Below are positions 36,187 through 60,644 of a stretch of 64,000 nt of DNA, in pieces. The DNA is from Microbacterium forte. GTDB lineage: Bacteria > Actinomycetota > Actinomycetes > Actinomycetales > Microbacteriaceae. The translations under genes and the position numbers were made by a program. The first letter of the stretch is position 1, and every line of letters begins with the position of its first letter. The notes below the pieces were generated by a model, which did no database searches, had not been told where the DNA came from, and was given only the letters and a program-made list of their open reading frames with translations. Where the stretch lies: the NCBI RefSeq assembly GCF_031885415.1, contig NZ_CP116871.1, forward strand, positions 3,038,001 through 3,102,000, read 5' to 3'.

Positions 36187-36200
36187 GACAATCGGTTGCC
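36187..36200. promoter_or_regulatory. LacI-type operator, site 1 (before MFS 2)
   Basis: GACAATCGGTTGCC, one of six matches to the island consensus GGCAANCGNTTGCC; next to the TetR palindrome, so MFS 2-GH78 may be doubly controlled. Confidence 0.7.
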
Positions 36201-36277
36201 AAACGGATTTCGACCACATCTCGCGAAGGACGCCCATCGACGGGCGCCGCGGATCACTGAACGATGAAGGAGTCCAG

Positions 36278-37630
36278 GTGACCAAGAGTGAATACGACCG
36301 CAGCGACACGATCGACTCGATCGCCGCGGCCCAGCCGGTAGGCGGGAACACCCCGGACGGCACCCCGCTCGAGACGACCGTCGTCGGCTCCGAGCCGACG
36401 GCCAAGGTCAGTGGCGGCTACATCTTCTGGCTGATGCTGGCCAACTTCGGTGCATCCATCGCGATGATGGTGCCGCTCGCGTACGGCCTGGCACTGCGCA
36501 TCACCGAGCTCGCCCCCGGGCATGAGGAGGTGCTCGGTTACGTCACCGGAACCGCGCAGCTGATCTTCCTGGTGCTGAGCCCCATGATCGGCATCTGGAG
36601 CGACCGCACCCGGTCGCGCTTCGGTCGACGCACGCCGTTCCTGTTCCTCGGCGCTGCCCTCGGCCTCGTCGGAGCGGTCATCATCGGCTTCGCCCCGAAC
36701 CTCCTCCTCGTGGGTGCAGGCTGGGTGGTCGCGATGACCGGATGGTCGACCGCGGGCGCCGCCATCCAGACGCTGCAGGCCGACAAGCTCCCCGAAGAAC
36801 AGCGCGGCAAGGTGTCGGCGCTCACAGGGCTCATGACGCAGGTGGCGCCGGTGCTCGGTATCGGCATCGCCTACGCCGTGTCGTACAGCACCTTCCTCGT
36901 GTTCTTCGTCCCCGCGGTGATCGGTGTCGTCCTGCTCGTGCTGCTCCCGACGTTCAAGAGGGAAGGCAGCTCGAAGGATCTCGTCGTCGACTCGACGGTG
37001 ACTCTCAAGAAGGTCATCGCCGGCTACGGCTTCAACGCCCGCAAGTACCCGGACTTCGCCTGGAACTGGGTCGGCCGGATGGTGTTCTTCATCGGTCTGT
37101 ACTTCAACACCACGTTCGGCACGTTCTTCTACGCCCAGCGTCTCGACCTGCCGGTGCGCGAGGTGGCCGGTGTCGTCGCCACCGTCGGGATGCTCGGGGT
37201 CGTCGCCGCTGCCGGCGGCGCACTGCTCGGCGGCTTCCTCTCGGACAAGCTCAAGCGCCGCCGTCTGTTCGTGCTCGCGGCCGCATTCATCTTCATCGGA
37301 GGCGCGCTCGCCGAGGCGTTCGCCTGGTCGCTGCCGCAGCTGATCATCGGCGCCGTGCTCATGCAGCTCGCGATCGCCGTGTTCGCCACAGTGGATCAGG
37401 CCATCGTCTACGCGATCATCCCCGACCGCGCCGAGTCCGGTCGATACATGGCCGTCGTCGCCTTCGCGCAGAAGATCCCCAGTGCGATCGCCCCGCTGAT
37501 CGCGCCGCTCATCATCACGATCGGTGCCGTCGGCGCGGAGAAGAACTACACGCTGCTGTACCTCATCGGCGCGGTGTTCGCTCTCATCGGTGGTCTGATC
37601 ATCATGTTCAAGGTCAAGGGAGTGCGTTGA
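36278..37630 (+). CDS. MFS transporter 2 of the glycoside island
   Basis: A 450-residue transporter with a 45-residue soluble N-terminus and 12 hydrophobic segments. SDRTRSRFGRRTPFLFLGAA (loop 2-3) and ARKYPDFAWNWVGRMVFFIG are family markers shared with MFS 3. GTG at 36278 is preceded by AAGGAG; upstream in-frame codons would run through the operators. GH78 follows 1 bp after the stop, so it probably imports a rhamnose-containing glycoside. Confidence 0.87.
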   Translation: MTKSEYDRSDTIDSIAAAQPVGGNTPDGTPLETTVVGSEPTAKVSGGYIFWLMLANFGASIAMMVPLAYGLALRITELAPGHEEVLGYVTGTAQLIFLVLSPMIGIWSDRTRSRFGRRTPFLFLGAALGLVGAVIIGFAPNLLLVGAGWVVAMTGWSTAGAAIQTLQADKLPEEQRGKVSALTGLMTQVAPVLGIGIAYAVSYSTFLVFFVPAVIGVVLLVLLPTFKREGSSKDLVVDSTVTLKKVIAGYGFNARKYPDFAWNWVGRMVFFIGLYFNTTFGTFFYAQRLDLPVREVAGVVATVGMLGVVAAAGGALLGGFLSDKLKRRRLFVLAAAFIFIGGALAEAFAWSLPQLIIGAVLMQLAIAVFATVDQAIVYAIIPDRAESGRYMAVVAFAQKIPSAIAPLIAPLIITIGAVGAEKNYTLLYLIGAVFALIGGLIIMFKVKGVR

Positions 37631-37631
37631 G

Positions 37632-40313: not shown

Positions 40314-40336
40314 GTGCGACGGCTGTGTATGGCGAC

Positions 40337-40364
40337 GGGTGCGCAGATCCAGGGCTGCGCACCC
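40337..40364. terminator. Bidirectional terminator between GH78 and marR
   Basis: GGGTGCGCA (40337-40345) pairs with TGCGCACCC (40356-40364), 10-nt loop. Confidence 0.75.
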
Positions 40365-40370
40365 GCCGCC

Positions 40371-40832: not shown

Positions 40833-40877
40833 GTCTGTACCGTAGTGCCTTCATAGCGTCTTCCCAGTGAGATTTAC

Positions 40878-40892
40878 TTAGCTTCAAGCTAA
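40878..40892. promoter_or_regulatory. MarR operator candidate
   Basis: TTAGCTT-C-AAGCTAA, a perfect 7-bp inverted repeat with 1-bp centre, 46 bp upstream of marR and 108 bp upstream of the monooxygenase gene. Confidence 0.7.
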
Positions 40893-40999
40893 CCTTTTGT
40901 CGAAGGAACCGATCCGGGGTCGTGTCGGGCCCAGGCTCGTGCGCCATCCCCGACGTCGGCCTCCTGTGCCCGCACCCCCGAAGACAGGAGGGTGGAACG

Positions 41000-43863: not shown

Positions 43864-43868
43864 TGCCC

Positions 43869-43912: not shown

Positions 43913-43922
43913 TCTCAAGGCG

Positions 43923-44957
43923 TCACCTCGTCGGTGCCGCCGTGGACTCCCGCACGACGAGCTCGAGCGGCAGGACGACCTTCGTCGGTGTCCTGCTCCG
44001 CTCAGGGTCGATGAGTGTCTCCATCGCGCGGGTGCCGATCTCGCGGAGCGGAGAGCGCAGAGTCGTGAGCGCGGGAACGGCCAGCTCGGCGCTGAAGATG
44101 TCGTCGAAGCCGATCACGCTGAAGGCCTCGGGCAGCTGCAGACCGCCGCTGCGCGCGGCCCGAAGGAGTCCGTGCGCGACGAGGTCGTTGTAGGCGAGGA
44201 CGGCGGTGACGCCGCTGGCCCGGACGCGTCGGAGGGACTCAGCGCCGCCCGCGACCGTCGGCTCGTCCACGGTGATCTCCACCACCCCCAGGCCTCGTGC
44301 GGCCGCGAGATCGAGAGTGAGCTCCCATCGTGCCCGGTTGATCCGGGCGCCGCCGAGACCGAGGTACGCGACGGAACGGTGTCCGAGGTCGCGCAGATGG
44401 TCGAGTGCGTCGGTGAGGCCGGACTCGAGGTCTGGGGTGACGCTCGGCAACGACGGTGTGGAGTGATTGGCTCCGACGATCGGCTTGCTCGCAGCCAGCG
44501 CTGCCAGCGAGTCGTCGTCGAGGCGAGAGGCGACGACGAGGAGGCCGTCCACGGACGGCTGCAGCGTCTCGATCGTCTCGAGCTCGATCTCGGCAGCACC
44601 CTCGGTCTCAGAGACGATCAGAGTGAAGCCGCTCCTCCGCGCGACCTGCTCCGCGCCACGGATCAGCTCGAAGTGCACGGGGTTGGTGATGTCGGGGAGG
44701 ACGATCGCATATGTCCCCGAGAGCCCTGTGGGAAGCGCCCGAGCCATGGGGTTCACCCGATAGCCGAGTTCTGCAGCAGCCGCGCGGATCTTCTCCTCGG
44801 TGGCGACGTTCGTGCGACCGGGCTTGTTCAGGGCGCGCGACACGGTCGACGGATTGAGTCCGACCCGCTGGGCGATGTCGTAGATCGTGGGGCGTCGGCC
44901 GATGCGACCGTCGATCGCGGCCGCATCCTGCGAGGCGTTCGGCTCGTCTGTCGACAT
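43923..44957 (-). CDS. LacI-family transcriptional regulator 2, probable master repressor of the island
   Basis: A 344-residue repressor: helix-turn-helix PTIYDIAQRVGLNPSTVSRA (near 25-45), hinge YRVNPMARALPTG, and a sugar-binding domain (IVLPDITNPVHFELIRGAEQ; VIGFDDIFSAELAVPALTTL). ATG at 44957 is preceded by GGGGAAG; an in-frame upstream start would place coding sequence over the operator. It is divergent from beta-glucuronidase 1, with the best palindromic operator copy between them. Five more copies of that site lie before other island operons. Effector is probably glucuronate or a glucuronide (inference). Confidence 0.9.
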   Translation of the reverse strand: MSTDEPNASQDAAAIDGRIGRRPTIYDIAQRVGLNPSTVSRALNKPGRTNVATEEKIRAAAAELGYRVNPMARALPTGLSGTYAIVLPDITNPVHFELIRGAEQVARRSGFTLIVSETEGAAEIELETIETLQPSVDGLLVVASRLDDDSLAALAASKPIVGANHSTPSLPSVTPDLESGLTDALDHLRDLGHRSVAYLGLGGARINRARWELTLDLAAARGLGVVEITVDEPTVAGGAESLRRVRASGVTAVLAYNDLVAHGLLRAARSGGLQLPEAFSVIGFDDIFSAELAVPALTTLRSPLREIGTRAMETLIDPERSRTPTKVVLPLELVVRESTAAPTR

Positions 44958-45035: not shown

Positions 45036-45057
45036 TTTTGGCAACCGCTTGCCAAAA
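45036..45057. promoter_or_regulatory. LacI-type operator, site 2 (lacI 2 / beta-glucuronidase 1)
   Basis: Arms TTTTGGCAA and TTGCCAAAA around CCGC: a perfect 9-bp inverted repeat and the most symmetric of the six sites. TTGCCA at its right half is followed, after 17 bp, by TTGTCT, a possible -10. Confidence 0.8.
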
Positions 45058-45123: not shown

Positions 45124-46896
45124 ATGCTTCGACCCCAGTGGTCCCCGACGCGGGAACTGGTCTCCCTCGACGGCCTGTGGAGATTCGCGGCGGATGACGA
45201 CGCGGTGCCCGAGCCGTGGTCGGATCGCCTCCGCACCGAACTCGAGGCGCCGGTCCCGTCGAGCTACGACGACCTGTTCGCCGACCAGGAGATCCGCGAC
45301 CACGTGGGCTGGGTCTGGTATCAGCGCACGGTCCGCGTGCCGCGCGGATGGGACGGCTCCCGGATCCTCGTGCGGGTCGAAGCGGCATCGCACCGAGCCC
45401 GCGTCTATGCCGGACATTCCCTCGTCGCCACCCACGACGGCGGGTTCACTCCGTTCGACGCCGATGTGACCGATCATGCGATCCCCGGCGAGGAGTTCCG
45501 CCTGACGATCGGCGTCGACAACGAGCTGACGAAGGCCACGCTCCCACCCGGCTTCGTGACCGTGGCCGACGACGGCCGCAGACAGCAGCGGTACCTGCAC
45601 GACTTCTACAACTACGGCGGTCTGCCGCGCTCTGTGTGGCTCGCGGCTGTTCCGCCCGTGCGGATCGAGGACATCACGGCGGTCCCCGACGTCGACGGCG
45701 CCGACGGCATCGTCCGCTACGACATCGTCCTGTCGGACCCGTCCGTCGCCGCCGACCTCTCGATCAGAGTGCTCGACGGCGCCGGACGCCAGGTCGCCGA
45801 GGGGCACGGGCGCACCGGGGAGATCCGGATCCCGGACGCGATCCTGTGGCGTCCGGGGGCGGGCCACCTGTACGACCTCGTCGTCGAAGCGACGACCGAG
45901 ACGGGCGTCCGTGACGTGTACACGTTGCCGGTCGGCATCCGCACCGTCGAAGTGAGAGGAGCCGAGTTCCTCATCAACGGCGAGCCCTTCTACTTCCGCG
46001 GATTCGGCAAGCACGAGGACTCCCCGGTTCGAGGCAAAGGTCACGACCCCGCGTACATGGTGCACGACTTCCACCTGATGCGCTGGGCGGGGGCGAACTC
46101 GTTCCGAACCTCCCACTACCCCTATGCGGAGGACGTCCTGGAGTACGCCGATCGGCACGGAATCGTCGTGATCGACGAGACCGCGGCCGTCGGTCTCAAC
46201 CTCGCGATCGGCGCCGGGATGGGCACGGGAGCGACCAGGGCGACGTTCGGACCGGAGGGCTTCGGAGACGAGACGAGAGCCGCTCACGCTCGCGCGATCC
46301 GCGAGCTGATCGCCCGGGACAAGAACCACCCGAGCGTCGTGATGTGGTGCATCGCCAACGAGCCGGCGTCGTTCGAGGAGGGAGCCCGCCCCTACTTCGA
46401 GCCGCTCGTGGCGCTCACCCGGGAGCTCGACCCGCATCGGCCCGTGACCTTCGCCAACCTCATCCAGGCATCGCATGAGACCGATCGCATCGCTGATCTG
46501 TTCGACGTCATCTGCCTCAACCGCTACTACGGCTGGTATGCCGACGGCGGCGACCTGCGCAGCGCCGAACGACACCTCGAGGCCGAACTCCGCGGGTGGG
46601 AGAGCACATACGGCAAACCTCTCGTCATGACCGAGTACGGAGCCGACACGATCGTCGGGACCCACTCGGTCTACGACCAGCCCTGGACCGAGGAGTATCA
46701 GCTCGCCTTCCTCGAGATGTACCACCGGGTCTTCGACAGGATCCCGGCGGTCGTCGGAGAGCAGGTCTGGAACTTCGCCGACTTCCACACGCCAGGCAGC
46801 GCCTTCCGCGTCGACGGCAACAAGAAGGGTGTGTTCACCCGCGATCGACGGCCCAAGGCCGCCGCTCACGCACTTCGTACCCGCTGGCGCGGCTGA
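45124..46896 (+). CDS. uidA: Beta-glucuronidase 1, GH2
   Basis: A 590-residue cytoplasmic enzyme cleaving beta-D-glucuronides. It aligns with E. coli GUS so well that key residues keep the same numbers: acid/base Glu413 (CIANEPAS), nucleophile Glu504 (VMTEYGADT), and the carboxylate-binding N-x-K motif Asn566/Lys568 (GNKKGVFTRDRRPK), which separates glucuronidases from galactosidases. Residues near 160-170 (YLHDFYNYGGLPRSVWL) and 330-345 also match. It starts the beta-glucuronidase-uxaC-uxuB operon under the perfect LacI operator. Confidence 0.94.
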   Translation: MLRPQWSPTRELVSLDGLWRFAADDDAVPEPWSDRLRTELEAPVPSSYDDLFADQEIRDHVGWVWYQRTVRVPRGWDGSRILVRVEAASHRARVYAGHSLVATHDGGFTPFDADVTDHAIPGEEFRLTIGVDNELTKATLPPGFVTVADDGRRQQRYLHDFYNYGGLPRSVWLAAVPPVRIEDITAVPDVDGADGIVRYDIVLSDPSVAADLSIRVLDGAGRQVAEGHGRTGEIRIPDAILWRPGAGHLYDLVVEATTETGVRDVYTLPVGIRTVEVRGAEFLINGEPFYFRGFGKHEDSPVRGKGHDPAYMVHDFHLMRWAGANSFRTSHYPYAEDVLEYADRHGIVVIDETAAVGLNLAIGAGMGTGATRATFGPEGFGDETRAAHARAIRELIARDKNHPSVVMWCIANEPASFEEGARPYFEPLVALTRELDPHRPVTFANLIQASHETDRIADLFDVICLNRYYGWYADGGDLRSAERHLEAELRGWESTYGKPLVMTEYGADTIVGTHSVYDQPWTEEYQLAFLEMYHRVFDRIPAVVGEQVWNFADFHTPGSAFRVDGNKKGVFTRDRRPKAAAHALRTRWRG

Positions 46897-46908
46897 AAAG
46901 GACCTTCC

Positions 46909-48312
46909 ATGTCACACGCATCACTCGTCCGTCGCGACCGCGACCGACTGCTCCCCGCCGATCCGACGACGCGCTCGGTCGCGCGCGCCCTCTACGAGCG
47001 CGTCGCCGATGCCCCGATCATCTCGCCGCACGGTCACGTGCCGGTGGAATGCCTGGTCGAGGATCGCCCGTTCTCCGACCCGGCATCGCTACTGATCACA
47101 CACGACCACTACGTCACCCGGCTGCTCCACGCGTCCGGGGTCGGCCTCGACGAGCTCGGGGTCGGCGGCAGTGCCGCGGACCCGCGCCAGGTGTGGCGGA
47201 GGTTCGCTGAGCGTTGGCCTCTGTTCGCGGGCACGGCGTCGGGGTACTGGATCTCGGAGTCTCTGCAGAATGTGCTCGACGTCACGGTGCCGCTCTCGGC
47301 GGCGACGGCGGATGAGGCGTACGACCGCATCGCGGATCAGCTCGCCACGCCCGAGCTGCGGCCGCGTGCGCTGTTCGAGCGCTTCGGCATCGAGGTGCTG
47401 GCGACGACCGACGATCCTCTGGACGATCTCGCAGGGCACGCGGCGCTCGCCGCGGAGGGCGCGGTCGGCCGGGTTCTGCCGACGTTCCGCCCCGACCGGT
47501 ACCTGGATCCTGATGCGGCAGGGTTCGCGCAGAACGTCGAGCGGCTCGTCGCCGAGACGGGCAGCCCGGGCACGTTCGCCGGGTACCTCGCCGCCCTCGA
47601 GCAGCGGAGGCGGTACTTCATCGAGCACGGGGCCGTGTCCGCAGATCACGGTGTCGAGGTCCCCGACACGCTCGACCTCGCGCCCGAAGAAGGCGAGGGG
47701 CTCTTCGCCCGCGTCGTCTCCGGTGATGCGGATGCCGGGGAGCGTCACTCGTTCCGGGCGCACATGCTGCTGCAGATGGCCCGGATGAGCGTCGACGACG
47801 GACTCGTCATGACGGTGCACGCCGGCGTCGTGCGCAACCACAGCACGCAGACCTTCCGCCGCTTCGGCCCCGACTCCGGGCATGACATCCCGCGGCGCAC
47901 AGACTTCGTCGGCGGTCTGCGGCCGCTTCTCGAGCGCTTCGGCCTCGAGCGCGATCTGCACCTGGTGCTCTTCGCCGTGGATGAGACCGTCTACTCTCGC
48001 GAGATCGCCCCGCTGGCGGGGTTCTACCCGAGCGTCTACATCGGCGCTCCCTGGTGGTTCCTCGATGCCCCGGATGCCATGGCACGGTTCCGCTCGGCGG
48101 TGACCGAGACGGCCGGGTTCTCGCGCGGGTCGGGGTTCATCGACGACACCCGCGCCTTCCTCTCCATACCGGCCCGACACGACACCGCACGCCGTGCGGA
48201 TGCCGCATTCCTCGCCCGGCTGGTCGTCGAGGGGCGTGTGGACGAGGACGCGGCCGGCGCCGTCATCGACGACATCGTCGGGCCCCAGCCGAAGAGGGTG
48301 TTCAAGCTGTGA
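46909..48312 (+). CDS. uxaC: Glucuronate isomerase
   Basis: A 467-residue amidohydrolase-like isomerase converting D-glucuronate to D-fructuronate. The metal motif ISPHGHVP (His41, His43) and the conserved TVHAGVVRNHSTQTFRRFGP and PSVYIGAPWWFLDAPDAM are typical of UxaC. It begins 12 bp after the glucuronidase and overlaps the next gene by GTGA. It takes the sugar released by the glucuronidases. Confidence 0.95.
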   Translation: MSHASLVRRDRDRLLPADPTTRSVARALYERVADAPIISPHGHVPVECLVEDRPFSDPASLLITHDHYVTRLLHASGVGLDELGVGGSAADPRQVWRRFAERWPLFAGTASGYWISESLQNVLDVTVPLSAATADEAYDRIADQLATPELRPRALFERFGIEVLATTDDPLDDLAGHAALAAEGAVGRVLPTFRPDRYLDPDAAGFAQNVERLVAETGSPGTFAGYLAALEQRRRYFIEHGAVSADHGVEVPDTLDLAPEEGEGLFARVVSGDADAGERHSFRAHMLLQMARMSVDDGLVMTVHAGVVRNHSTQTFRRFGPDSGHDIPRRTDFVGGLRPLLERFGLERDLHLVLFAVDETVYSREIAPLAGFYPSVYIGAPWWFLDAPDAMARFRSAVTETAGFSRGSGFIDDTRAFLSIPARHDTARRADAAFLARLVVEGRVDEDAAGAVIDDIVGPQPKRVFKL

Positions 48313-49607: not shown

Positions 49608-49613
49608 CGAGTT

Positions 49614-49651
49614 GGCAATCGGTTGTCATTGACTCGAATCCCTGCTTTACT
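49614..49651 (+). promoter_or_regulatory. LacI-type operator, site 3, with promoter of the ABC operon
   Basis: Operator GGCAATCGGTTGTC (49614-49627). Its right half forms the -35 TTGTCA (49623-49628), followed by a 17-bp spacer and TTTACT (49646-49651). The same layout occurs before beta-glucuronidase 2. Confidence 0.75.
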
Positions 49652-49691: not shown

Positions 49692-49705
49692 GACAAGCGG
49701 TTGCG
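49692..49705. promoter_or_regulatory. LacI-type operator, site 4
   Basis: GACAAGCGGTTGCG, 78 bp downstream of site 3 and before the substrate-binding protein gene; two sites could support looping or block the early transcript. Confidence 0.6.
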
Positions 49706-49738: not shown

Positions 49739-51292
49739 ATGTGGAACACCCGTAAGCACCGTCGTGGCGTGGTCCTGCCCGCCGCGATGCTCATCACCGC
49801 ACTCGCGGTGTCCGGCTGCGCGGCCGGAAGCGACCCCGAACCCGCAGGCACGTCGGCCACCGTCGTCGAGAAGGATCTCGCCATCGCGGCTGTCTCGGCG
49901 CCGAACTCGCTCGACCCGGCGCAGCTCGTCGATGGGCAGCAGATGTTCGTGTGGTCATCGATCCTCGACACTCTGCTCCGCAAGGATCCGGCCACGGGGG
50001 AGATCATCCCGGGTGCCGCGGAATCGTGGGAGTACAACGAGGACGGCACGCAGCTCACGCTCGTACTTCGTGAGGGAATGAGCTTCAGTTCGGGAGACCC
50101 GGTGAACGCGGACGCCGTCGTGGCGACCATGCTCCGCTCGCGGGAGACCGCCGGCAACGTGCAGAGTCGTCTGGCTTCGGTCACGGATGTCGTCGCCGAG
50201 GACGACCGGACGGTCGTGGTCTCGTTCGACGGCTTCGACCCGCAGTTCCTCGACAACCTCTCCTCCGGCCCGGGGGCGATCGGCGACCCTGCCACGATCG
50301 ACGAGGAGCGCACCGCCACAGATCCCGTCGGCTCGGGGCCGTTCACACTCGACACCGAAAAGACCGTTCCCGGGAGCAGCTACGTGCTGGTGAAGCGAGA
50401 CGACTACTGGGACGCGGAGAACGTCCCGTTCAAGACGCTGACGGTGAAGGTCCTTCAGGATCAGACGGCGTCGTTCAATGCGCTCCAGGCGGGCGAACTC
50501 AACGCGGCGACAGTGCAGACGCAGGTCGTCGGGCAGCTCGACAAGGAGAAGTTCTCGATCAAACAGAACGATGCGGTCGCGACGAGCTTCCTGAACATCC
50601 TGGACAGAGGCGGGGAGAAGTGGCCCGCTCTCGGAGATGAGAAGGTACGCCAGGCGATCAACCTCGCCATCGATCGGGACGCCGTCCTCAAGGGGCTGTA
50701 CAGCGGAGTCGGAATCGCCACGACGCAGCTGGTGAGCCCATTCGGCGCCATCTACGACGAATCGCTCAACGACGAGTACGAGTACGACCCAGAGAAGGGG
50801 CGTGAGCTCGTCGAGGAGGCGGGCTACGCGGGGGAGAGCTTCCAGATCCCCAGCACCTTCCTGTCGACCACTGTGGAACCCGTTCTCACCCAGGCGTTCG
50901 CCGACATCGGCCTGACGCTGGAATGGGTCACGGTTCCTCCGCAGCAGGCGCAGTCGGCGGCTCGCTCCGGCGACTACGGTCTGTACTTCCAGATCCTCGG
51001 GTTCAATGCGGACAGCGCGGACCTGGCGACGACCTTCGCCCTGGACGGAGTCGGCAACCCGCGCGGCTACACCGATGACACCTTGGACCGGCTGTTCTCG
51101 GAGATCGACTCGACGGTCGCCTTCGACGACCGCGTACCGCTGTATCAGGAACTGAACGAGTACGTCGCCGATCAGGCATTCGTCGCGCCGCTGGTCTACG
51201 TCGGCGCTGTGTGGGCTACCGCCGACGGCATCAGCTACGTCGGAGAGGCGAACACCCTCTCCACGATCCGACAGTTCGACGTCACCGAGTGA
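49739..51292 (+). CDS. ABC transporter substrate-binding lipoprotein (SBP family 5)
   Basis: A 517-residue lipoprotein: signal peptide and lipobox AVSGCAAG (Cys near 28), then a family 5 (Opp/Dpp type) binding fold: NSLDPAQLVDGQQMFVWSSI, LVLREGMSFSSGDPVNADAV, PVGSGPFTL, KVRQAINLAIDRDAVLKGLY. Family 5 proteins bind peptides, nickel or oligosaccharides; the glycoside-island position and LacI operators point to a sugar-containing ligand. ATG at 49739 has AAAGGAG upstream. A hairpin after the gene separates it from the permease. Confidence 0.9.
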   Translation: MWNTRKHRRGVVLPAAMLITALAVSGCAAGSDPEPAGTSATVVEKDLAIAAVSAPNSLDPAQLVDGQQMFVWSSILDTLLRKDPATGEIIPGAAESWEYNEDGTQLTLVLREGMSFSSGDPVNADAVVATMLRSRETAGNVQSRLASVTDVVAEDDRTVVVSFDGFDPQFLDNLSSGPGAIGDPATIDEERTATDPVGSGPFTLDTEKTVPGSSYVLVKRDDYWDAENVPFKTLTVKVLQDQTASFNALQAGELNAATVQTQVVGQLDKEKFSIKQNDAVATSFLNILDRGGEKWPALGDEKVRQAINLAIDRDAVLKGLYSGVGIATTQLVSPFGAIYDESLNDEYEYDPEKGRELVEEAGYAGESFQIPSTFLSTTVEPVLTQAFADIGLTLEWVTVPPQQAQSAARSGDYGLYFQILGFNADSADLATTFALDGVGNPRGYTDDTLDRLFSEIDSTVAFDDRVPLYQELNEYVADQAFVAPLVYVGAVWATADGISYVGEANTLSTIRQFDVTE

Positions 51293-51300
51293 GTGAGGGG

Positions 51301-51326
51301 TGGGGATGCGGTCCGCCGCATCCCCA
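51301..51326 (+). terminator. Attenuating hairpin between binding protein and permease
   Basis: TGGGGATGCGG / CCGCATCCCCA, perfect 11-bp stem, loop TCCG, 9 bp after the stop. This position commonly raises binding-protein mRNA over permease mRNA. Confidence 0.7.
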
Positions 51327-51346
51327 CCCGCACCGGGAGTTCTTTG

Positions 51347-52288
51347 ATGCTCAGTTATATCCTTCGCCGTCTCGGTGCCGGGATCGTGCTCGCGATCCTG
51401 GTGACCCTGATCACCTTCCTGCTGCTCAGCACGTCGTTCGATGACGTCGCGCAGTCGATTCTCGGCACCGGTGCGACGCCGGATGTCGTTGCGGGGCTCA
51501 TCGAGCAGAAGGGGTGGGATCGACCTGTCCTCGTCCAGTACTTCGACTGGCTGATCCACGCGGTTCAGGGCGACTTCGGCGTCTCCGTGTACACGTCGCT
51601 GCCAGTCGGACCGACCGTTCTCCAGCGCCTCGCCGTCACGCTCTCGATCATCGTCCCCGCGCTGATCCTGACCGTCATCATCTCGGTGGTGCTCGGCGTC
51701 TGGTCTGCCTCGCGCGGGGGAATCGTCGACCGCATCGCGCAGGGGATCTCTCTCATCGGGTACATCGTCCCCGGCCTCCTGCTGGCGATCGTGCTGGTGG
51801 TGGTGTTCGCAGTGCAGCTCAAATGGCTTCCCGCCACCGGCTTCACACCGTTCGCCGAGGACCCGGCGGCGTGGGTGCGCAGCATCACGATCCCGGTGAT
51901 CGTGCTGACCATCGGCGGCGTCGCCAACATGGCTGCTCAGGTGCGAGGGCGCATGATCGACGAGCTCCGCCGCGACTACATCCGCACCCTGCGGACGCGC
52001 GGCTCATCGACCACCTCGATCGTCATCAAGCACGCGCTGCGCAACGCTGCGAGCCCGGCGCTCACGGTGATGTCGCTGGAGTTCATCCAGATGTTCGGCG
52101 GCGCGCTCATCATCGAGAACGTCTTCGCTCTGCCGGGCTACGGCAGCTTCGCGTTCAACGCCTCTCTTCAGGGCGACATCCCCGTGATCATGGGCATCAC
52201 CGCCTTCGGTGTGCTGCTGGTCACCGTCGTCAACCTCCTCACCGACCTGGCCAACGGCTGGTTGAACCCGAAAGCGAGAGTCCATTGA
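51347..52288 (+). CDS. ABC transporter permease (DppB type)
   Basis: A 313-residue membrane protein: first segment YILRRLGAGIVLAILVTLIT, then a long loop (QKGWDRPVLVQYFDWL) and the permease EAA-type loop DYIRTLRTRGSSTTSIVIKH. ATG at 51347 with GGGAG upstream; TTG just before it is in frame but less likely. The stop overlaps the TTG start of the fused partner. Confidence 0.9.
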   Translation: MLSYILRRLGAGIVLAILVTLITFLLLSTSFDDVAQSILGTGATPDVVAGLIEQKGWDRPVLVQYFDWLIHAVQGDFGVSVYTSLPVGPTVLQRLAVTLSIIVPALILTVIISVVLGVWSASRGGIVDRIAQGISLIGYIVPGLLLAIVLVVVFAVQLKWLPATGFTPFAEDPAAWVRSITIPVIVLTIGGVANMAAQVRGRMIDELRRDYIRTLRTRGSSTTSIVIKHALRNAASPALTVMSLEFIQMFGGALIIENVFALPGYGSFAFNASLQGDIPVIMGITAFGVLLVTVVNLLTDLANGWLNPKARVH

Positions 52289-54108
52289 GCGACGAACGCC
52301 CACTCCAGACGAACACCGGAACCGTGACGCCGCCCAGCACCGAGCTGCTCGTCACGCTCGAGAACGCGGCGAAGACCCGGACGTCCACCTGGCGTCGAAT
52401 CCTGCGGGATCCTCAGGCCGTCGGGACCCTCGGCATCCTCGCCGTGATCTTCCTCCTCGGACTGCTCACGCCGTGGCTCGCGCCGCACGGTCCGAACGAC
52501 GCCGATCTCGCCATGATCAACGCGCCCGTCGGCACGCCCGGGTACCTGCTCGGCGCCGACGAGGCGGGCCGCGACATCCTGTCTCGGCTGCTCCACTCGA
52601 TCAACACGGCGGCCATCTCTGCTCTGATCGGCGCCGGCGTGGCGCTGGTCGTCGGAGTGATCGCCGGTCTCATCGGCGGGTACTTCGGCACGGTGACGAG
52701 AGCCACCACCGAGTGGCTCTTCAACCTGATCATGACGTTCCCCGGCATCCTGCTGCTGATCATCCTGATGCCGGTCACGGGTGGCGACTACCGCTTCACA
52801 ATGTTGATCTTCGGTGTGCTCCTCTCGCCGGGCATCTATCGCATCGTCCGCAACCTCGTGCTCGGGGTGAAGAACGAGCTCTACGTCGACGCGGCGCGGG
52901 TGTCGGGTCTCGGCAATCTCCGCATTCTCGGCCGCCACGTGCTCTTCGTCGTTCGCGGTCCGATCATCATCGCCGCAGCCTTCCTTGCCGGGTCCGCGAT
53001 CGCCGTGCAGTCCGGGCTCGCCTTCCTCGGCGTCGGCTCGCTGCAGATCCCCAGCTTCGGATCGATGATCTCGTCGGGCTTCCGCAACCTCTACATCGCT
53101 CCGACGCAGTTCCTCTGGCCGAGCCTCCTGCTCGGCGTGATCACGGCGTCACTCGTGCTGCTCGGCAACGCTCTGCGCGACATCCTCGAGGGCTCCATGC
53201 CGAAGCCGGCGAAGGTCGGACGCGGTCAGCGTGTGCTCGACAGCGCCGGAGAGGCGACGGCCGCGCGGACGGGGCTGCTCGAGATCAACGACCTCGCCAT
53301 CGCCTACCCGCGTCCGAGCGGAGGACTGAACGAGGTCGTGCGCGGCGTCGACCTCTCGATCGCCAGAGGGCAGGTCGTCGGACTCGTCGGGGAATCGGGC
53401 TCGGGCAAGTCGCAGACCGCCTTCGCCTCCCTCGGCGTGCTCCCCAACGAGGCGGTGATCACCCGCGGGTCCATCCGTTTCGACGGGCGTGAGCTCGTCG
53501 GTCTCACGGACGCGCAGATGCGGCCCCTCCGCGGCAAGGAGATCGCCTATATTCCGCAGGAGCCCATGTCGAACCTCGACCCCTCCTACAAGGTGGGCGC
53601 TCAACTGGTCGAGGGAGTGCGCTCGGCGCTCGGCGTGACGCGCGCCGAGGCGACCGCTCGTGTGCTCGCGCTCCTCGAGCGGGTCGGCATCGCGGATCCG
53701 AAGCGGACCTTCGACTCGTATCCGCATCAGATCTCGGGCGGCATGGCGCAGCGCGTGCTCATCGCCGGTGCGGTCGCCAGCCGACCGAAGCTCCTGATCG
53801 CCGACGAGCCGACCACGGCGCTCGATGTCACGGTCCAGGCGGAGATCCTCGATCTTCTGCGCGATCTGCAGTCGGAGCTCGATATGGCGATCCTCCTCGT
53901 CACCCACAACTTCGGCGTCGTGGCTGACCTGTGCGATCGCATCGCGGTCATGCAGAACGGCGTGATCGTCGAATCCGGCACCGCCGCGGAGGTGTTCGCC
54001 CACCCGACCCACGAGTACACGAAGATGCTGCTCGGGGCGATCCTCGACGAGAGCACGGTCCGCACGGACCCGCCCGTCGCGATCACTGAAGAAGGGACGC
54101 AGCGATGA
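52285..54108 (+). CDS. Fused ABC permease-ATPase (DppC-DppD type)
   Basis: A 607-residue fusion. Residues about 1-310 are a DppC-like permease ([40 protein letters not shown], the EAA loop). Residues about 330-590 are an ATPase: Walker [10 protein letters not shown] near 369, signature [20 protein letters not shown] near 483, Walker [17 protein letters not shown]. No stop or frame break separates the parts. Translation probably starts at TTG 52285, overlapping the previous stop as TTGA. Such fusions occur in actinobacterial Opp systems. Confidence 0.9.
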
Positions 54109-54929
54109 GTCTTCTCGAGGTCGATGAGCTTCGCGTGTCGTTCCCCGGCAAGGGGTGGCGGAAGAAGCCGGTGGAGGTGCTGCACGGCGTCTCGCTGAGT
54201 GTGGCGCCCGGCGAGACGCTGGGGCTGGTGGGGGAATCCGGATCCGGCAAGACCACCATCGGTCGCGCGGTGCTGGGGCTGGTGACGCCATCCGGAGGCG
54301 ACATCCGCTTCGACGGGACATCCATCGCACGGATCTCGGCGCGCGATCGACGCCGGCTGTCGCGAGACATCCAGGTCGTCTTCCAGGATCCGTACACCTC
54401 GCTGAATCCCTCGATGACGGTGGGCGACATCCTCGCGGAACCGCTCGTCATCCAGGGGGCGACCGCCAAGGACGCGCGCTCGCGCGTCAGAACGCTGCTC
54501 GACCAGGTCGGATTGCCCTCGGATGCGATCGAGCGGCTGCCCCGGGAGTTCTCGGGCGGTCAGCGCCAGCGTGTCGCCATCGCGCGTGCGCTCGCCCCCG
54601 AGCCTCGCCTCATCGTGTGCGACGAGCCGGTGTCGGCGCTCGACCTGTCGACGCAGGCCCGAGTGCTCGATCTGTTCGTCGAGATCCAGCGGGCGACGGG
54701 GGTGGCCTATCTCTTCGTCTCGCACGACCTCTCGGTCGTCAGGCACATCAGCCATCGCGTGGCCGTGCTGTACCGCGGCGACCTCGTCGAGACGGGATCA
54801 GCCGAGCATGTGACGTCGAGCCCCGACCACCCGTACACCCAGAAGCTGCTCCTGGCGGCTCCGGTCGCCGACCCCGCCAGGCAGCGCGAGCGGAGGCTCG
54901 AGCGTCGCCGCCTCATGGAGGCGTCATGA
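54105..54929 (+). CDS. ABC transporter ATPase (DppF/OppF type)
   Basis: A 274-residue ATPase: Walker [10 protein letters not shown] near 43, Q-loop [17 protein letters not shown], signature [19 protein letters not shown] near 149, Walker [17 protein letters not shown], and the OppF tail [20 protein letters not shown]. Its ATG overlaps the fusion gene stop (ATGA), and its stop overlaps the GH43 start. It pairs with the fused ATPase to power the importer. Confidence 0.93.
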
Positions 54930-57007: not shown

Positions 57008-57063
57008 CAGTCCTCCTCAGATCAAAATAGTGAGTGCTTTCTAATTTTATGTTACCGTGGTGT

Positions 57064-57077
57064 GGCAATCGGTTGTC
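57064..57077. promoter_or_regulatory. LacI-type operator, site 5 (before GH1)
   Basis: GGCAATCGGTTGTC, 30 bp upstream of the GH1 start and downstream of the likely promoter in the AT-rich stretch 57022-57055. Confidence 0.75.
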
Positions 57078-57106
57078 ATGATTGCTCCGATCGAGAGGAT
57101 CCCTCA

Positions 57107-58351
57107 ATGACGAACTTCCCCACCGGCTTCCTCTGGGGTGCCGCCACCGCCGGACACCAGATCGAAGGCAACAACGTCAACAGCGACTGGTGGGAGCGCG
57201 AGCTGACCATGCCCGGCATGGAACCCTCGGGTGACGCGGTCGACAGCTATCACCGGTATCGCGAGGACATCGACCTGCTCGCGGATGCGGGGCTCACGAC
57301 CTACCGGTTCAGCCTCGAGTGGTCGCGCATCGAGCCCGTCGAGGGTCGCTTCTCGCGGGCCGAGCTCGCGCACTACCGACGCGTGATCGACTACTGCTTC
57401 TCGCGTGGAGTCGTTCCCTTCGTCACCCTGCAGCACTTCACGACGCCGCGCTGGTTCGCGAACGACGGCGGGTGGACGTCGCCGAAGGCCAAGGACCGCT
57501 TCCTGAGTTTCGTGACCGAAGCCACGACGATCCTCGACGGCGTCGAGTGGGTGGCGACCATGAATGAGCCCAACATGCAGGCGGCCATCATGACGGCGAT
57601 GCGCCGCATGGCCGAGACTCAGGGCGGGCAGTGGACGAGTCCCACGGTCGAGAGCGACGCCGAGCGCGAGGGCGGCGAGGAGACGAAGCTCGAGAAGAAG
57701 CAGCACGGTGCATTCCTGCAGGACGCCGACCCCGAGATCGGCCGCGCGTTCGTCGAGATCCACCATGCTGCACGCGAGATCGTGCGCGCCCGTACGGACG
57801 CCAAGGTCGGCTGGACCATCGCGGCGGGCGCGCTCACCGCCGCCCCCGGCGGTGAGGAGAAGCTGAAGCAGATCCGCTACGGCAAGGAAGACGTCTACTG
57901 GGAGGGATCCCGGGGCGACGACTTCGTGGGCGTGCAGGCGTACTCGTCGCAGGAGGTCGATGCGGACGGTCTCGTGCCGCACCCGCCGCACCCCGACAAC
58001 ACGCTCGTCGGCACCGCTTTCCGCCCCGACTCGCTCGCCATGGCCGTGCGGCACGCATGGGAGGTCTCCGAGGGCGTCACGGTCATCGTGACCGAGAACG
58101 GCATCGCCACCGGCGATGACACCCAGCGGATCCGCTACACGGATGCCGCGCTGCGCGGCCTCGCAGACACGATCGACGAGGGCATCGACGTGCGCGGCTA
58201 CCTGCACTGGACGCTGCTGGACAACTTCGAGTGGGGTCACTGGGCTCCGACCTTCGGTCTGATCGCCGTGGACCGCGAGACGTTCGTGCGCACGCCCAAG
58301 CCGAGCCTCGGCTGGCTCGGCGAGGTCGCGAAGCGCAACGGTCTGGGCTGA
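57107..58351 (+). CDS. Glycoside hydrolase family 1 (beta-glucosidase-like)
   Basis: A 414-residue cytoplasmic GH1 enzyme: N-terminal signature FLWGAATAGHQIEGNN, FSLEWSRIEPVEG, acid/base Glu154 in ATMNEPNMQ, nucleophile Glu330 in VIVTENGIAT, and the sugar-binding LLDNFEWGHWAPTFGL. A charged insert (about 175-205) replaces part of a usual loop. ATG at 57107 follows GAGAGG. Glucosidase, galactosidase or fucosidase activity is possible; it is followed by MFS 3 and an SDR in the same direction. Confidence 0.9.
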   Translation: MTNFPTGFLWGAATAGHQIEGNNVNSDWWERELTMPGMEPSGDAVDSYHRYREDIDLLADAGLTTYRFSLEWSRIEPVEGRFSRAELAHYRRVIDYCFSRGVVPFVTLQHFTTPRWFANDGGWTSPKAKDRFLSFVTEATTILDGVEWVATMNEPNMQAAIMTAMRRMAETQGGQWTSPTVESDAEREGGEETKLEKKQHGAFLQDADPEIGRAFVEIHHAAREIVRARTDAKVGWTIAAGALTAAPGGEEKLKQIRYGKEDVYWEGSRGDDFVGVQAYSSQEVDADGLVPHPPHPDNTLVGTAFRPDSLAMAVRHAWEVSEGVTVIVTENGIATGDDTQRIRYTDAALRGLADTIDEGIDVRGYLHWTLLDNFEWGHWAPTFGLIAVDRETFVRTPKPSLGWLGEVAKRNGLG

Positions 58352-58378
58352 CCGGCACCACGCACAGAGGCCGAGCAG

Positions 58379-59749
58379 ATGACCGTCGACGTCGACGATC
58401 CCCAGGGCGAGAGCGCTGCGGAGGCTGCGGGGCGCGTTCCGGAGGGCAACCTCGCGCTTCCGCAGCCACCCTCCCTGACCCCCGCGCCCGACGGCGCGGG
58501 GGCCGGGCAGGCAGCCGTCTCGGCGTGGTCGATCGTCCTGCTCGTCGCCGCGACGTTCGGGGCCGGCATGGCGATGATCGTGCCGATGGCTTACTCGCTG
58601 GCGGTGCGTCTCGACCAGTTGGCGCCCGGGCGCACCGAAGCCCTCGGCATCGTCCTGGCCCTCGGCTCGGCAGCCACTCTCGTGCTCGCCCCTCTCACCG
58701 GCATCCTCAGCGATCGTCTGCGCAGTCGCTGGGGGCGACGGCGTCCGTTCACCGTGATCGGTCTGCTGATCGGCGCGGCTTCGGTGCCCGTCATGGCCCT
58801 CGCGCCGAGTCTCGTCGTGCTCACGATCGGATGGACGCTGTCGACCGTCGGCTGGGGAACAGCGGCAGCCTCGCTCGGCAACTGGCAGGCGGACTGTCTG
58901 CCGCCGCATCAGCGCGGACGCGTATCCGGACTCACCGGTGTCACGATGCAGGTCGCGCCCGTCATCGGGATCATCCTCGTCGGATTCTTCCGCGATCAGG
59001 TGCTCGTCGTGTTCGCGCTCCCGGCCGCGATCGGTGTGGTGCTGGTGGTAGCGTTCCTCGCTGTCGTGCGCGACCCCGACAGCCGGGGGATGGTGATCGA
59101 GCGGCGGCTGACCGTCGGTGGACTGCTGCGGAGTTACGGCTTCGATCCGCGCAAAGCGCCGGACTTCGCGTGGAACTGGCTCGGACGCTTCATCTTCTTC
59201 TCCGGGCTGACCCTCACCACCAGCTTCACCGTGTTCTTCGTCGCCCAGCGCCTCGAGCTGCGCGTGCCGGATGTCGCGGGAGTGCTCGCGATCGTCTCGG
59301 CGTCGAGCATCGTCACGGCCACCCTCGGCTCCCTCGGGGGCGGATGGCTGAGCGATCGGGTGGGCAGGCGCAAGCCGTTCATCCTCACGGGTTCCGCTCT
59401 CTTCGCTGCGGGATGCAGCGTCTCGGCGTTCGCCCACGACCTGCCGACGCTCATGGTCGGCACCCTGCTGAACTCCCTCGGCATCGCCACTTTCTCGGCC
59501 GTGGCTCAGGCGCTGCTGCTCGACGTGCTCCCCGATCGCGAGCGCGAAGCGGGTCGTTACATGGCCATCGCCCTGTTCGCGCAGAAGATCCCCGGCGTCT
59601 TCGCGCCGGTGCTGGGCGGGGCGGTGCTGGCCATCGGCGCCGGCGCCGGTGCCGGCGCCGAGAACTTCACCGCGCTGTACCTCCTCGCTGCCGCGCTCGC
59701 CTTCGCCGGCGGTCTCCTCATCACCCTCTCGGTGCGCAGCGTCCGCTGA
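58379..59749 (+). CDS. MFS transporter 3 of the glycoside island
   Basis: A 456-residue transporter paralogous to MFS 2: soluble N-terminus of about 40 residues, loop SDRLRSRWGRRRPFTVIGLL, and PRKAPDFAWNWLGRFIFFSG. Twelve hydrophobic segments. It starts 27 bp after GH1 without a strong ribosome-binding site (GGCCGAG), so coupling to GH1 is likely. Probably imports the GH1 substrate. Confidence 0.86.
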   Translation: MTVDVDDPQGESAAEAAGRVPEGNLALPQPPSLTPAPDGAGAGQAAVSAWSIVLLVAATFGAGMAMIVPMAYSLAVRLDQLAPGRTEALGIVLALGSAATLVLAPLTGILSDRLRSRWGRRRPFTVIGLLIGAASVPVMALAPSLVVLTIGWTLSTVGWGTAAASLGNWQADCLPPHQRGRVSGLTGVTMQVAPVIGIILVGFFRDQVLVVFALPAAIGVVLVVAFLAVVRDPDSRGMVIERRLTVGGLLRSYGFDPRKAPDFAWNWLGRFIFFSGLTLTTSFTVFFVAQRLELRVPDVAGVLAIVSASSIVTATLGSLGGGWLSDRVGRRKPFILTGSALFAAGCSVSAFAHDLPTLMVGTLLNSLGIATFSAVAQALLLDVLPDREREAGRYMAIALFAQKIPGVFAPVLGGAVLAIGAGAGAGAENFTALYLLAAALAFAGGLLITLSVRSVR

Positions 59750-59773
59750 GCATCACCCCTTCGAAACGGAGCA

Positions 59774-60604
59774 ATGATGTCCTTTCCCTTCCCCGATGTC
59801 TCGTCGACCCCCCTCGCCTCGCTGACCGATCTGACAGGACGCACCGCGCTCATCACCGGAGGCGCTCAGGGCCTCGGCCGTGCCATCGCGGATCGGCTCG
59901 CCGAGGCCGGTGCGAGCATCGTGATCGCCGACCTCGACGAGGGTCGCTCTCGCGCGGCGGCGGGCGAGATCGGCGAGCGTTTCTCGGTGCGGACGGTGGG
60001 CGTGCGAATGGATGTGACCGACTCGGCGTCGGTGTCTGCAGCGACCGACGCCGCGGCGGCTGAGGTCGGTGCCCCGGACATCTGGGTGAACAACGCCGGG
60101 ATCTTCCCCAGCCAGTCGCTGCTCGAGATGAGCGACGAGACCTGGGAGCAGGTCTTCGCGGTCAACACCCGAGGTGTGCGCAACGGCGCGCGCGAGGCGG
60201 CCCGTCGGATGCCGCAGGGTGGCGTGATCGTCAACATCGTCTCGACCGCGGGCTTCCGCGGGACTGCGCCCGGCCTGTCGGCCTACGTCTCGTCGAAGCA
60301 TGCGGTGCGGGGGCTCACGAAGCAGCTCGCCCTCGAGCTCGCCCCCCAGGGCATCCGCGTGCTCGGCGTCGCCCCCAGCTACGTGCCCACGGAGGGCAAC
60401 ATGGCGATGGCGGCCGCGGCGATCGAGCAGATGGCTGCCGCGGGCATCGATCCCGCCACCATGCCTGCGGCCATGTCGCAGAGCCTGATCGGTCGCCAGG
60501 GGACGCCCGACGACATCGCACGGGTGGTGCTGTTCTGCGCGAGCGACCTCTCGACGGTGATGACCGGCAGCACCCTTCTGGCTGATGCGGGCGAGACCAT
60601 CTGA
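59774..60604 (+). CDS. Short-chain dehydrogenase/reductase
   Basis: A 276-residue classical SDR: cofactor motif ALITGGAQGLGRAIADRLAE near 24-43, NNAG at WVNNAGIFP, and catalytic YVSSK (Tyr171, Lys175) with upstream Ser in IVSTAGF. The acidic residue in VIADLDEGRS suggests NAD(H). The substrate is unknown; in a hexuronate cluster it may be a second fructuronate reductase or a sugar/alcohol dehydrogenase. A methionine-rich stretch (NMAMAAAAIEQMAAAG) lies in the substrate-binding lid. Confidence 0.86.
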   Translation: MMSFPFPDVSSTPLASLTDLTGRTALITGGAQGLGRAIADRLAEAGASIVIADLDEGRSRAAAGEIGERFSVRTVGVRMDVTDSASVSAATDAAAAEVGAPDIWVNNAGIFPSQSLLEMSDETWEQVFAVNTRGVRNGAREAARRMPQGGVIVNIVSTAGFRGTAPGLSAYVSSKHAVRGLTKQLALELAPQGIRVLGVAPSYVPTEGNMAMAAAAIEQMAAAGIDPATMPAAMSQSLIGRQGTPDDIARVVLFCASDLSTVMTGSTLLADAGETI

Positions 60605-60606
60605 CT

Positions 60607-60644
60607 GGCAATCGGTTGCCATTTACCTCGAACTCTGCTGTACT
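60607..60644 (+). promoter_or_regulatory. LacI-type operator, site 6, with promoter of beta-glucuronidase 2
   Basis: Operator GGCAATCGGTTGCC (60607-60620), a near-perfect palindrome. -35 TTGCCA (60616-60621), 17-bp spacer, -10 TGTACT (60639-60644). The spacer and flanks resemble those at 49614-49651 (both contain CTCGAA and end CTGC). Confidence 0.8.

What the first reader, a model, noticed from the sequence alone, without database searches (positions are those of the whole stretch)
36187..60620. Six dispersed copies of one LacI operator define a regulon across 25 kb
Near-palindromes matching GGCAANCGNTTGCC stand at 36187, 45036, 49614, 49692, 57064 and 60607, each upstream of a different island unit (MFS 2-GH78, lacI 2/glucuronidase 1, ABC operon twice, GH1, glucuronidase 2-manD). 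The most symmetric copy lies between lacI 2 and glucuronidase 1. This strongly suggests that the LacI protein at 43923-44957 coordinates the whole locus.
Basis: partly seen in the sequence, partly recalled or inferred. Interest (0 to 1): 0.75.

Follow-up and report, generated by a model that had tools for sequence, protein, structure and literature searches.

The report
Glucuronide regulon with two shared-operator repressors
Seven copies of one short DNA switch site mark a 29-kb set of genes for eating glucuronic-acid-containing sugars in a Microbacterium, and two related repressor proteins, not just one, carry the right recognition residues to bind it.

Summary
The sites are real. Five of the six match GRCAANCGNTTGYC exactly (0.01 expected in the window). 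The 3.75-Mb chromosome holds one further exact copy, 1.4 kb past the window end, so all six exact copies lie within 29.2 kb. The remaining listed site (49692) is weak but kept in relatives. They mark a LacI-type glucuronide/hexuronate regulon: 74 of 79 named loci around relatives of the nearby LacI genes hold an exact GNCAANCGNTTGNC; both controls give 0 of 79.

That lacI 2 alone coordinates it is not supported. A second LacI ("LacI3", window 64233-65318) lies just past the window beside the seventh site. Of 36 LacI-family genes in the genome only LacI2 and LacI3 have the PS-TVSR recognition helix. In 22 of 23 other Microbacterium loci the family LacI is closer in identity to LacI3. Most likely both share one operator set and differ in inducer.

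Operator pairs in relatives keep helical spacing (34, 45, 56, 67, 78 bp), which suggests cooperative binding or looping. New member of a known kind; binding and inducers are untested.

The parts
36187..36200 (.). operator 1, GACAATCGGTTGCC, upstream of MFS transporter - rhamnosidase unit
   Evidence: same in G144; one-mismatch version in G005; matrix score 25.4
45040..45053 (.). operator 2, GGCAACCGCTTGCC, between divergent lacI2 and gusA1; longest symmetric arms
   Evidence: an operator upstream of lacI2 in all 4 orthologues, 12 of 14 columns identical
49614..49627 (.). operator 3a, GGCAATCGGTTGTC; right half reads by eye as a -35-like TTGTCA 17 bp from TTTACT
   Evidence: 14 of 14 columns identical in 4 genomes
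49692..49705 (.). operator 3b, weaker copy GACAAGCGGTTGCG, 78 bp from 3a
   Evidence: matrix score 10.2; same sequence in G005 and G022; in G144 an exact GTCAACCGGTTGCC (promoter strand) 66 bp from its partner
57064..57077 (.). operator 4, GGCAATCGGTTGTC, upstream of GH1
   Evidence: 14 of 14 identical in 4 genomes
60607..60620 (.). operator 5, GGCAATCGGTTGCC, upstream of gusA2-manD; by eye -35-like TTGCCA 17 bp from TGTACT
   Evidence: 14 of 14 identical in 4 genomes
43923..44957 (-). lacI2, LacI-family repressor, 344 aa. Its partner lacI3 (64233-65318, +, L005:4233-5318) and the seventh operator (65366-65379, L005:5366) lie just past the window end and so are not listed as parts
   Evidence: helix NPSTVSRAL, hinge NPMARALPTG; lacI3; seventh site
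36278..37630 (+). MFS transporter, first gene of operator-1 unit (GTG start after GGAG)
   Evidence: NF041573, below curated cut-off
45124..46896 (+). gusA1, beta-glucuronidase
   Evidence: NF007538, above cut-off
46909..48312 (+). uxaC, glucuronate isomerase
   Evidence: NF002794, above cut-off
48309..49607 (+). uxuB-like fructuronate reductase / mannitol dehydrogenase family (start codon not settled; candidates)
   Evidence: below cut-offs
49739..54929 (+). dipeptide/nickel-type ABC transporter operon: SBP_bac_5 49739-51292, permease 51293-52288, permease-ATPase frame 52168-54108, ATPase 54105-54929
57107..58351 (+). GH1 beta-glucosidase-type enzyme
   Evidence: TIGR03356, below cut-off; start
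58379..60604 (+). MFS transporter 58379-59749 and SDR dehydrogenase 59774-60604 downstream of GH1
60683..62476 (+). gusA2, beta-glucuronidase
   Evidence: NF007538, above cut-off
62507..63745 (+). manD, D-mannonate dehydratase
   Evidence: NF043051, above cut-off

Best explanation
The sites are operators (consensus tGGCAAnCGnTTGCCa) of a local LacI-family glucuronide/hexuronate regulon of six predicted transcription units over 29.2 kb. Two paralogous repressors with the same DNA-reading residues, LacI2 (43923-44957) and LacI3 (64233-65318), most likely both bind all of them as dimers. Without substrate they sit on or next to the promoter and block RNA polymerase. A glucuronide or an early hexuronate intermediate releases them, and gusA, uxaC, uxuB, manD, the transporters and the accessory glycosidases come on together. 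LacI2 is probably autoregulated (operator in its divergent promoter), while no operator directly precedes lacI3. Their ligand domains have diverged, so they probably sense different members of the same substrate family and full induction would need both signals. Where operators come in pairs (49614/49692 here) the pairs keep helical phase, which suggests cooperative or looped repression. Shown: the sites, their exclusivity, conservation, association with this LacI subfamily, shared recognition residues, phasing. Inferred: binding, repression, promoter positions, inducers, co-occupancy.
For: Exact sites genome-wide only in the island (chance). Operators are conserved while some flanks diverge in four Microbacterium genomes. 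74 of 79 named loci around family LacI genes hold an exact GNCAANCGNTTGNC; reversed pattern 0 of 79, shuffled 0 of 79. In Microbacterium, loci of 28 of 31 family LacI genes (every hit at 256 bits or more) hold one (counted). 19 of 29 genomes with a hit of 225 bits or more (my cut) have an exact GRCAANCGNTTGYC against 13 of 120 without (Fisher 5e-9), and all 13 genomes with two or more sites have the family. Only LacI2 and LacI3 of 36 LacI helices are PS-TVSR; published rule that TVSR regulators with the same two residues tend to bind alike (PMC2978694, passages). In relatives the operators stand by uxaC, uxuB, gusA, manD and the ABC genes. Pair spacing is periodic.
Against: No binding or expression data. 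Ten of 29 family-positive genomes lack an exact GRCAANCGNTTGYC; 3 of 31 loci (L118, L119, L126) lack an exact GNCAANCGNTTGNC; 5 of 79 named loci lack it. 49692 is weak in this genome. A simple sigma-70 scan finds no promoter-like site in any of the three stretches scanned, so the promoter positions rest on my reading by eye. LacI2 sits on a long branch (1.04 changes per site) and could have lost function or changed role. That both proteins bind every site rests on shared helix and hinge residues only.
Confidence: 0.8

Rival explanations
1. LacI2 alone is the regulator of all seven sites; LacI3 controls something else.
For: LacI2 is divergent from gusA1 with the most symmetric operator in its promoter; an operator upstream of lacI2 is kept in all four orthologues.
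Against: LacI3 has the same helix and hinge and an operator 48 bp past its stop. LacI2 orthologues (84% identity or more, the next hit being 54%) are in 4 of 149 genus genomes, all of which also have LacI3, while the operator is used in many genomes without LacI2; in 22 of 23 other loci the LacI is closer in identity to LacI3, though LacI2's long branch biases that measure.
Confidence: 0.12
2. LacI3 alone is the repressor; LacI2 is a diverged copy that now reads another ligand or no longer represses.
For: In most other Microbacterium loci one LacI, closer in identity to LacI3, sits with the operators; LacI2 has a long stem branch and lacks ligand-domain motifs kept by most members of both subclades.
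Against: LacI2 keeps the invariant PSTVSRA and NP.AR residues and an operator upstream of its own gene in four genomes. G043 has an island of nearly the same genes, with the same operator, under a single LacI of the LacI2 subclade.
Confidence: 0.15
3. Another regulator (not of this LacI subfamily) reads the sites.
For: A second LacI class with helix VSLATASRVL sits near exact sites in five fetched Microbacterium loci (L072, L073, L075, L076, L077).
Against: Four of those five loci also have a family LacI, and G107 (L072) has one on another contig. The VSLATASRVL LacI of the window's own genome (L010) has no copy near it, and 29 of 30 fetched LacI loci of this genome have no copy at one mismatch within 1.5 kb, the exception being LacI3's.
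Confidence: 0.03
4. The sites are chance or compositional repeats.
For: At three mismatches the pattern is at chance level.
Against: Exact counts, genome-wide exclusivity, footprinting and zero controls.
Confidence: 0.01

Closest known systems
LacI-family hexuronate regulators (UxuR, KdgR, UxaR, ExuR groups of RegPrecise; PMC4052901, sections 9 and 10 and passages)
   Same: LacI-type repressor, even palindrome with central CG, glucuronate/galacturonate catabolic targets; local regulon.
   Different: Orthology to any named group was not tested (supplements and RegPrecise not available). Here two subfamily members in one island and a GGCAAnCGnTTGCC operator, with accessory rhamnosidase, GH1 and a dipeptide-type ABC transporter.
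GalR/GalS of E. coli (that they are isorepressors is recalled; GalR parts from passages of PMC5110547)
   Same: Two paralogous LacI-family repressors, several operators of one consensus at several promoters of one pathway; GalR dimers on two operators loop DNA.
   Different: LacI2 and LacI3 fall in separate subclades; all targets are in one 29-kb cluster; binding is untested.
Engineered LacI/GalR chimeras with one DNA-binding domain and different ligand domains (PMC13056197, abstract)
   Same: Several repressors on one operator giving AND logic is what the LacI2/LacI3 pair would do naturally.
   Different: Synthetic; the natural pair's inducers are unknown.
E. coli Lac repressor with paired operators (PMC5081198, passages)
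   Same: Repression by an operator pair oscillates with operator spacing over loops of 6-8 turns.
   Different: LacI2/LacI3 match Lac repressor only to about residue 333 or 328, so its C-terminal end is absent (that the tetramer helix lies there is recalled); spacing as short as 34 bp occurs.

Membership tests
LacI family of repressors | LacI helix-turn-helix domain (PF00356) | tested here: met
   LacI2 48.7 bits, LacI3 57 bits, cut-off 27
LacI family of repressors | LacI/periplasmic-binding-type ligand domain | tested here: met
   long matches to CcpA, LacI, PurR, RbsR chains
LacI family of repressors | even palindromic operator with central CG | tested here: met
   16-bp tGGCAAnCGnTTGCCa; T/A at the outer position 61% without being selected; rule from PMC4052901 section 9
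LacI family of repressors | TVSR helix goes with G at half-site position 6 | tested here: met
   G 72% at position 6 in 207 distinct core-selected sites; rule from PMC2978694 passages
Hexuronate (UxuR/KdgR-type) LacI regulon | targets are glucuronate/mannonate catabolic genes | tested here: met
   gusA, uxaC and manD above curated cut-offs downstream of operators; repeated in relatives
Hexuronate (UxuR/KdgR-type) LacI regulon | orthology to a named UxuR/KdgR group | not tested
   no named equivalog cut-off was reached: LacI2 best 158.9 of 382 bits, LacI3 best 179 of 382
Hexuronate (UxuR/KdgR-type) LacI regulon | released by a hexuronate or derived metabolite | not testable with these tools
   needs binding assays
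Isorepressor pair (GalR/GalS-like) | two paralogues with the same DNA-reading residues in one genome | tested here: met
   only 2 of 36 LacI helices are PS-TVSR; hinge NPMARALPTG in both
Isorepressor pair (GalR/GalS-like) | both proteins bind the same operators | not testable with these tools
   no experiment
LacI tetramer looping repressor | C-terminal tetramerisation helix (recalled as the end of Lac repressor) | tested here: not met
   match to 1jyf/1lbg ends at chain residue 333 (LacI2) and 328 (LacI3) of 349/360

The most novel reading that the evidence does not exclude
The island is a natural two-input gate. Two long-separated LacI repressors that kept one operator specificity but diverged in ligand pocket were brought together in one cluster, so that every promoter is released only when both of two signals (for example an intact plant glucuronide and a glucuronate breakdown product) are present. 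Pairs of operators held in helical phase from 3 to about 8 turns make the repression cooperative even though the proteins lack the C-terminal end of Lac repressor.
Probability: 0.3. Interest if true: 0.6.

Novelty: new member of a known kind. Interest (0 to 1): 0.42.

Why it matters
It gives a well-bounded, testable regulon (six predicted promoters, seven sites, two candidate repressors) for glucuronide use in Microbacterium and, by the same operator, in many other Actinobacteria. If both repressors act on one operator set with different inducers it is a natural version of the multi-input circuits that are otherwise engineered from LacI chimeras. The phased operator pairs offer a comparative-genomic handle on cooperative binding by LacI proteins without the Lac repressor's tetramer end.

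Tried and rejected
Chance or composition as the cause of the sites: rejected. LacI1 (30498-31454) as regulator: helix RP-AVSQ, not PS-TVSR. An 11.0-bp period as a universal value: rejected; Microbacterium alone gives 11.05, the named set (18 of 23 pairs from other genera) 10.45, and 10.1 when pairs up to 130 bp are included, so I claim helical phasing only. The first matrix forced G at position 7; a core-only selection showed position 7 is G in 77% and position 6 G in 72%, so the apparent invariance was built in. The inverted repeat at 36156-36172 as a second regulon of this genome: unique even at two mismatches, so no regulon found. Terminator-like structure at the seventh site is the operator palindrome itself. 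Consensus promoters at the operators: none by the scan. Papers: listings for LacI with Microbacterium glucuronide, saponin, glucuronate isomerase with Arthrobacter and Microbacterium glucuronide clusters showed nothing on this regulon by title and abstract start in the held library.

Scripts that failed or misled: searches stopped on errors (38 after printing L065-L069); the helix-finding patterns matched nothing because of my own pattern errors; the pattern still missed most helices of this genome and was replaced by direct reading; one search failed on a wrong frame; on a bad search term. Rows dropped before the spacing test: overlapping or close pairs at 12-24 bp (six), pairs beyond 130 bp (five), and one of three pairs among overlapping sites in L234.
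Full report
Observation. The six sites are present, the second at 45040 rather than 45036. Two match GGCAANCGNTTGCC exactly; three have one mismatch and 49692 two. With three mismatches allowed the pattern is at chance level (35 against 35.8), so the loose pattern alone proves nothing. With one mismatch there are 5 against 0.16 expected, and as GRCAANCGNTTGYC 5 exact against 0.01.

Whole genome. The window is positions 3038001-3102000 of a 3.753-Mb single-contig genome. Exact GRCAANCGNTTGYC occurs six times: the five strong window sites and 3103366, which is window position 65366, 1.4 kb past the end. With one mismatch there are seven further places, one of them 49692 and six elsewhere; the reversed control pattern has 35 places at the same tolerance and one exact place.

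Island content. From operator to operator the units are: MFS transporter and rhamnosidase; divergent lacI2 and gusA1-uxaC-uxuB-like; a dipeptide-type ABC operon with a GH43 behind it; GH1-MFS-SDR; gusA2-manD; and, past the window, MFS-Gfo/Idh-SDR. GusA1, GusA2, UxaC and ManD pass curated cut-offs; the uxuB-like, rhamnosidase and GH1 matches do not. The six window sites end 29 to 111 bp before plausible starts. By eye, at 49614, 60607 and 65366 the right half of the operator reads as a -35 box (TTGTCA, TTGCCA, TTGCCT) 17 bp before TTTACT, TGTACT and TTTGAT, and at 36187 the operator follows a TTGCCT-17-TACTAT promoter (sequences). Against this, a simple sigma-70 consensus scan found no promoter-like site in the three stretches scanned (L005 3650-5600, window 36000-50000 and 56900-60800). 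There are no transcript data.

A second repressor. The genome has 36 LacI-family genes. One, LacI3, starts just past the window (64233-65318). LacI2 and LacI3 share 40 of 58 residues from TIYD on, including NPSTVSRAL, KPGR and NPMARALPTG. Reading all 36 helices, only these two have PS before TVSR. Camas et al. (PMC2978694, passages) report that TVSR regulators with the same residues at these two positions tend to bind like sites whatever their distance, so the prediction is that both bind this operator. LacI1 (30498-31454) has RP-AVSQ.

Footprinting. Three other genomes of the genus (G005, G022, G144) have orthologues of both LacI2 (81-86% identity) and LacI3 (90-92%). Their promoters keep the operator: 14 of 14 columns identical at 49614, 57064, 60607 and 65366, 12 of 14 at 45040, with left flanks of 0 and 1 of 20 at 45040 and 65366. 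At 49614 and 60607 the left flank is the end of a coding gene and is also well kept (17 and 15 of 20), and right flanks reach 17 of 20 at 57064, where the gene begins, so there the contrast is weaker. In G005 and G144 lacI2 faces uxaC; no gusA1 match appears there. The rhamnosidase promoter has the site in G144 and a one-mismatch version in G005; G022 shows no homologue of that unit in the 11 kb fetched beyond its lacI2. 49692 is kept in G005 and G022, and G144 has an exact copy 66 bp from its partner instead of 78.

Genus and beyond. In 149 genomes of the genus (Microbacterium, by the named contigs) the exact pattern occurs in 32. A LacI2-like protein at 225 bits or more, a cut that I chose, occurs in 29. 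19 of those 29 have a site against 13 of 120 others (Fisher 5.1e-9), and all 13 genomes with two or more sites have the family. The 31 hits at 256 bits or more have helix [NSA]PSTVSRA[LF], 30 of them with hinge NP.AR (L102 has NTAAR). In the stretches held around them (4 to 20 kb; 64 kb for LacI2 itself) 28 of 31 have an exact GNCAANCGNTTGNC (my count; misses L118, L119, L126). Two more distant genes with PSTVSRAL helices but another hinge (L132, L134) have none. Among 79 named loci found with an alignment of the family (many genera of Actinomycetota, with one Sporosarcina and one Acidobacteria MAG), 74 have an exact site, 201 in all; the reversed pattern and a shuffle give 0 of 79 each. With the bare 10-bp core CAANCGNTTG the same loci give 262 places against 30 for the reversed core, so core-only counts carry about one tenth noise. 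Among 207 distinct core-selected sites, T is 61% at half-site position 8, G 77% at 7 and 72% at 6, so symmetry extends beyond what was selected.

Who regulates what. In these loci a family LacI sits with uxaC, uxuB, gusA, manD or the ABC genes in most cases. In 22 of 23 other Microbacterium loci it is closer in identity to LacI3, but LacI2's long branch biases that. In a tree of 63 proteins LacI2 and LacI3 fall in two different subclades (97/84 and 96/88), each set of four orthologues united at 100/100; three of the 23 (L121, L122, L125) group on LacI2's side. LacI2 has a long stem (1.04) and lacks ligand-domain motifs (consensus ESQESGE, TSWISRRRWE) that most members of both subclades keep in some form, while the DNA-reading residues are invariant in the 20 aligned. 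G043 has a comparable island (rhamnosidase, uxaC, uxuB, ABC, GH1, MFS, gusA, manD) with the same operators under one regulator of the LacI2 subclade. A history that fits is that two related regulons whose regulators already shared an operator merged into one island. lacI2 has an operator upstream in four of four genomes; lacI3 has one within 60 bp after its stop in four of four and none directly before it (for this genome), though read-through from gusA2-manD could still autoregulate it.

Paired operators. Within the fetched loci 14 pairs of separate sites lay 34-78 bp apart, where about 0.8 chance partners are expected (0.0104 per strong site, 80 strong sites; three overlapping pairs at 11 bp and one weak partner at 183 bp are left out of this count). 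To test spacing I searched 366 genus genomes for two sites 30-90 bp apart: 25 genomes, 28 promoters, reversed control 0. Spacings were 34 (two), 41, 45, 46, 56 (four), 66 (three), 67 (two), 70, 77 (two), 78 (nine), 79 (two). 26 of 28 lie within 1 bp of 34, 45, 56, 67 or 78; the exceptions are 41 and 70. In genomes outside the 149, 18 of 19 do. In 43 genomes chosen for having the family or pairs, spacing 14-29 gave none and 91-151 one (103 bp). The named set gave 23 pairs in 30-90 bp, 18 from other genera, with best period 10.45; 48, 48, 69, 70 and 87 fall off the 11-bp series. Related promoters are not independent: keeping one per promoter type and spacing, p is 0.0005 to 0.0015 with 15 values; using distinct spacings only, about 0.005 with 17. 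Ravcheev et al. (PMC4052901 section 9) already report LacI-family site pairs peaking at 13, 22 and 32 bp and read the last two as cooperative binding, so this extends a known theme to 3-8 turns in one subfamily. The proteins match Lac repressor only to residue 333 or 328, so how dimers would touch is unknown; GalR dimers do loop (PMC5110547 passages).

Verdict. A real, ordinary-kind LacI regulon, well supported; the single-regulator claim is replaced by a two-repressor model. Binding, inducers and logic remain to be shown. Six LacI groups for glucuronate and galacturonate were listed in 2014 (PMC4052901 section 10); I could not test whether this subfamily is one of them, and four searches of the held papers listed no description of it in Microbacterium or Arthrobacter.

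Noticed in passing
window 36156-36172: Inverted repeat GTAACCAAAGTGGTTAC (7-bp arms) inside the promoter of the MFS-rhamnosidase unit, same in G005 and with one change in G144, but unique in this genome even at two mismatches; perhaps a second, different regulator.
   Followed up: partly
window 40922-43863: Baeyer-Villiger-type flavin monooxygenase (best NCBIfam model neopentalenolactone D synthase, below its cut-off) and an SMP-30/gluconolactonase behind the rhamnosidase: suggests that the glycosides carry a terpenoid-like aglycone that is also oxidised.
   Followed up: no
window 52168-54108: One open frame matches both a DppC-type permease and an OppD/NikD-type ATPase, as if fused.
   Followed up: no
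window 30498-35371: LacI1 and a GH2 (GalB-like) unit next to the island have no copy of the operator at one mismatch, so they look like a separate regulon.
   Followed up: partly
L072, L073, L075, L076, L077: A second LacI class with helix VSLATASRVL lies near exact copies of the same operator in these Microbacterium loci; its counterpart in the window's genome (L010) has none nearby.
   Followed up: no
L079/L102 (G146), L193/L224, L228/L229: Other genomes with two members of this LacI subfamily: a Microbacterium, Phytoactinopolyspora halotolerans, Pseudarthrobacter siccitolerans.
   Followed up: no
L191, L201, L205, L207, L211, L217, L219, L222, L227: In Arthrobacter and relatives operator pairs at a like place in each locus are 117, 116, 68, 87, 67, 69, 68, 78 and 77 bp apart, a natural series of insertions near whole helical turns (orthology not checked).
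   Followed up: partly
G000 chromosome: 36 LacI-family regulators in a 3.75-Mb genome, a high load.
   Followed up: no
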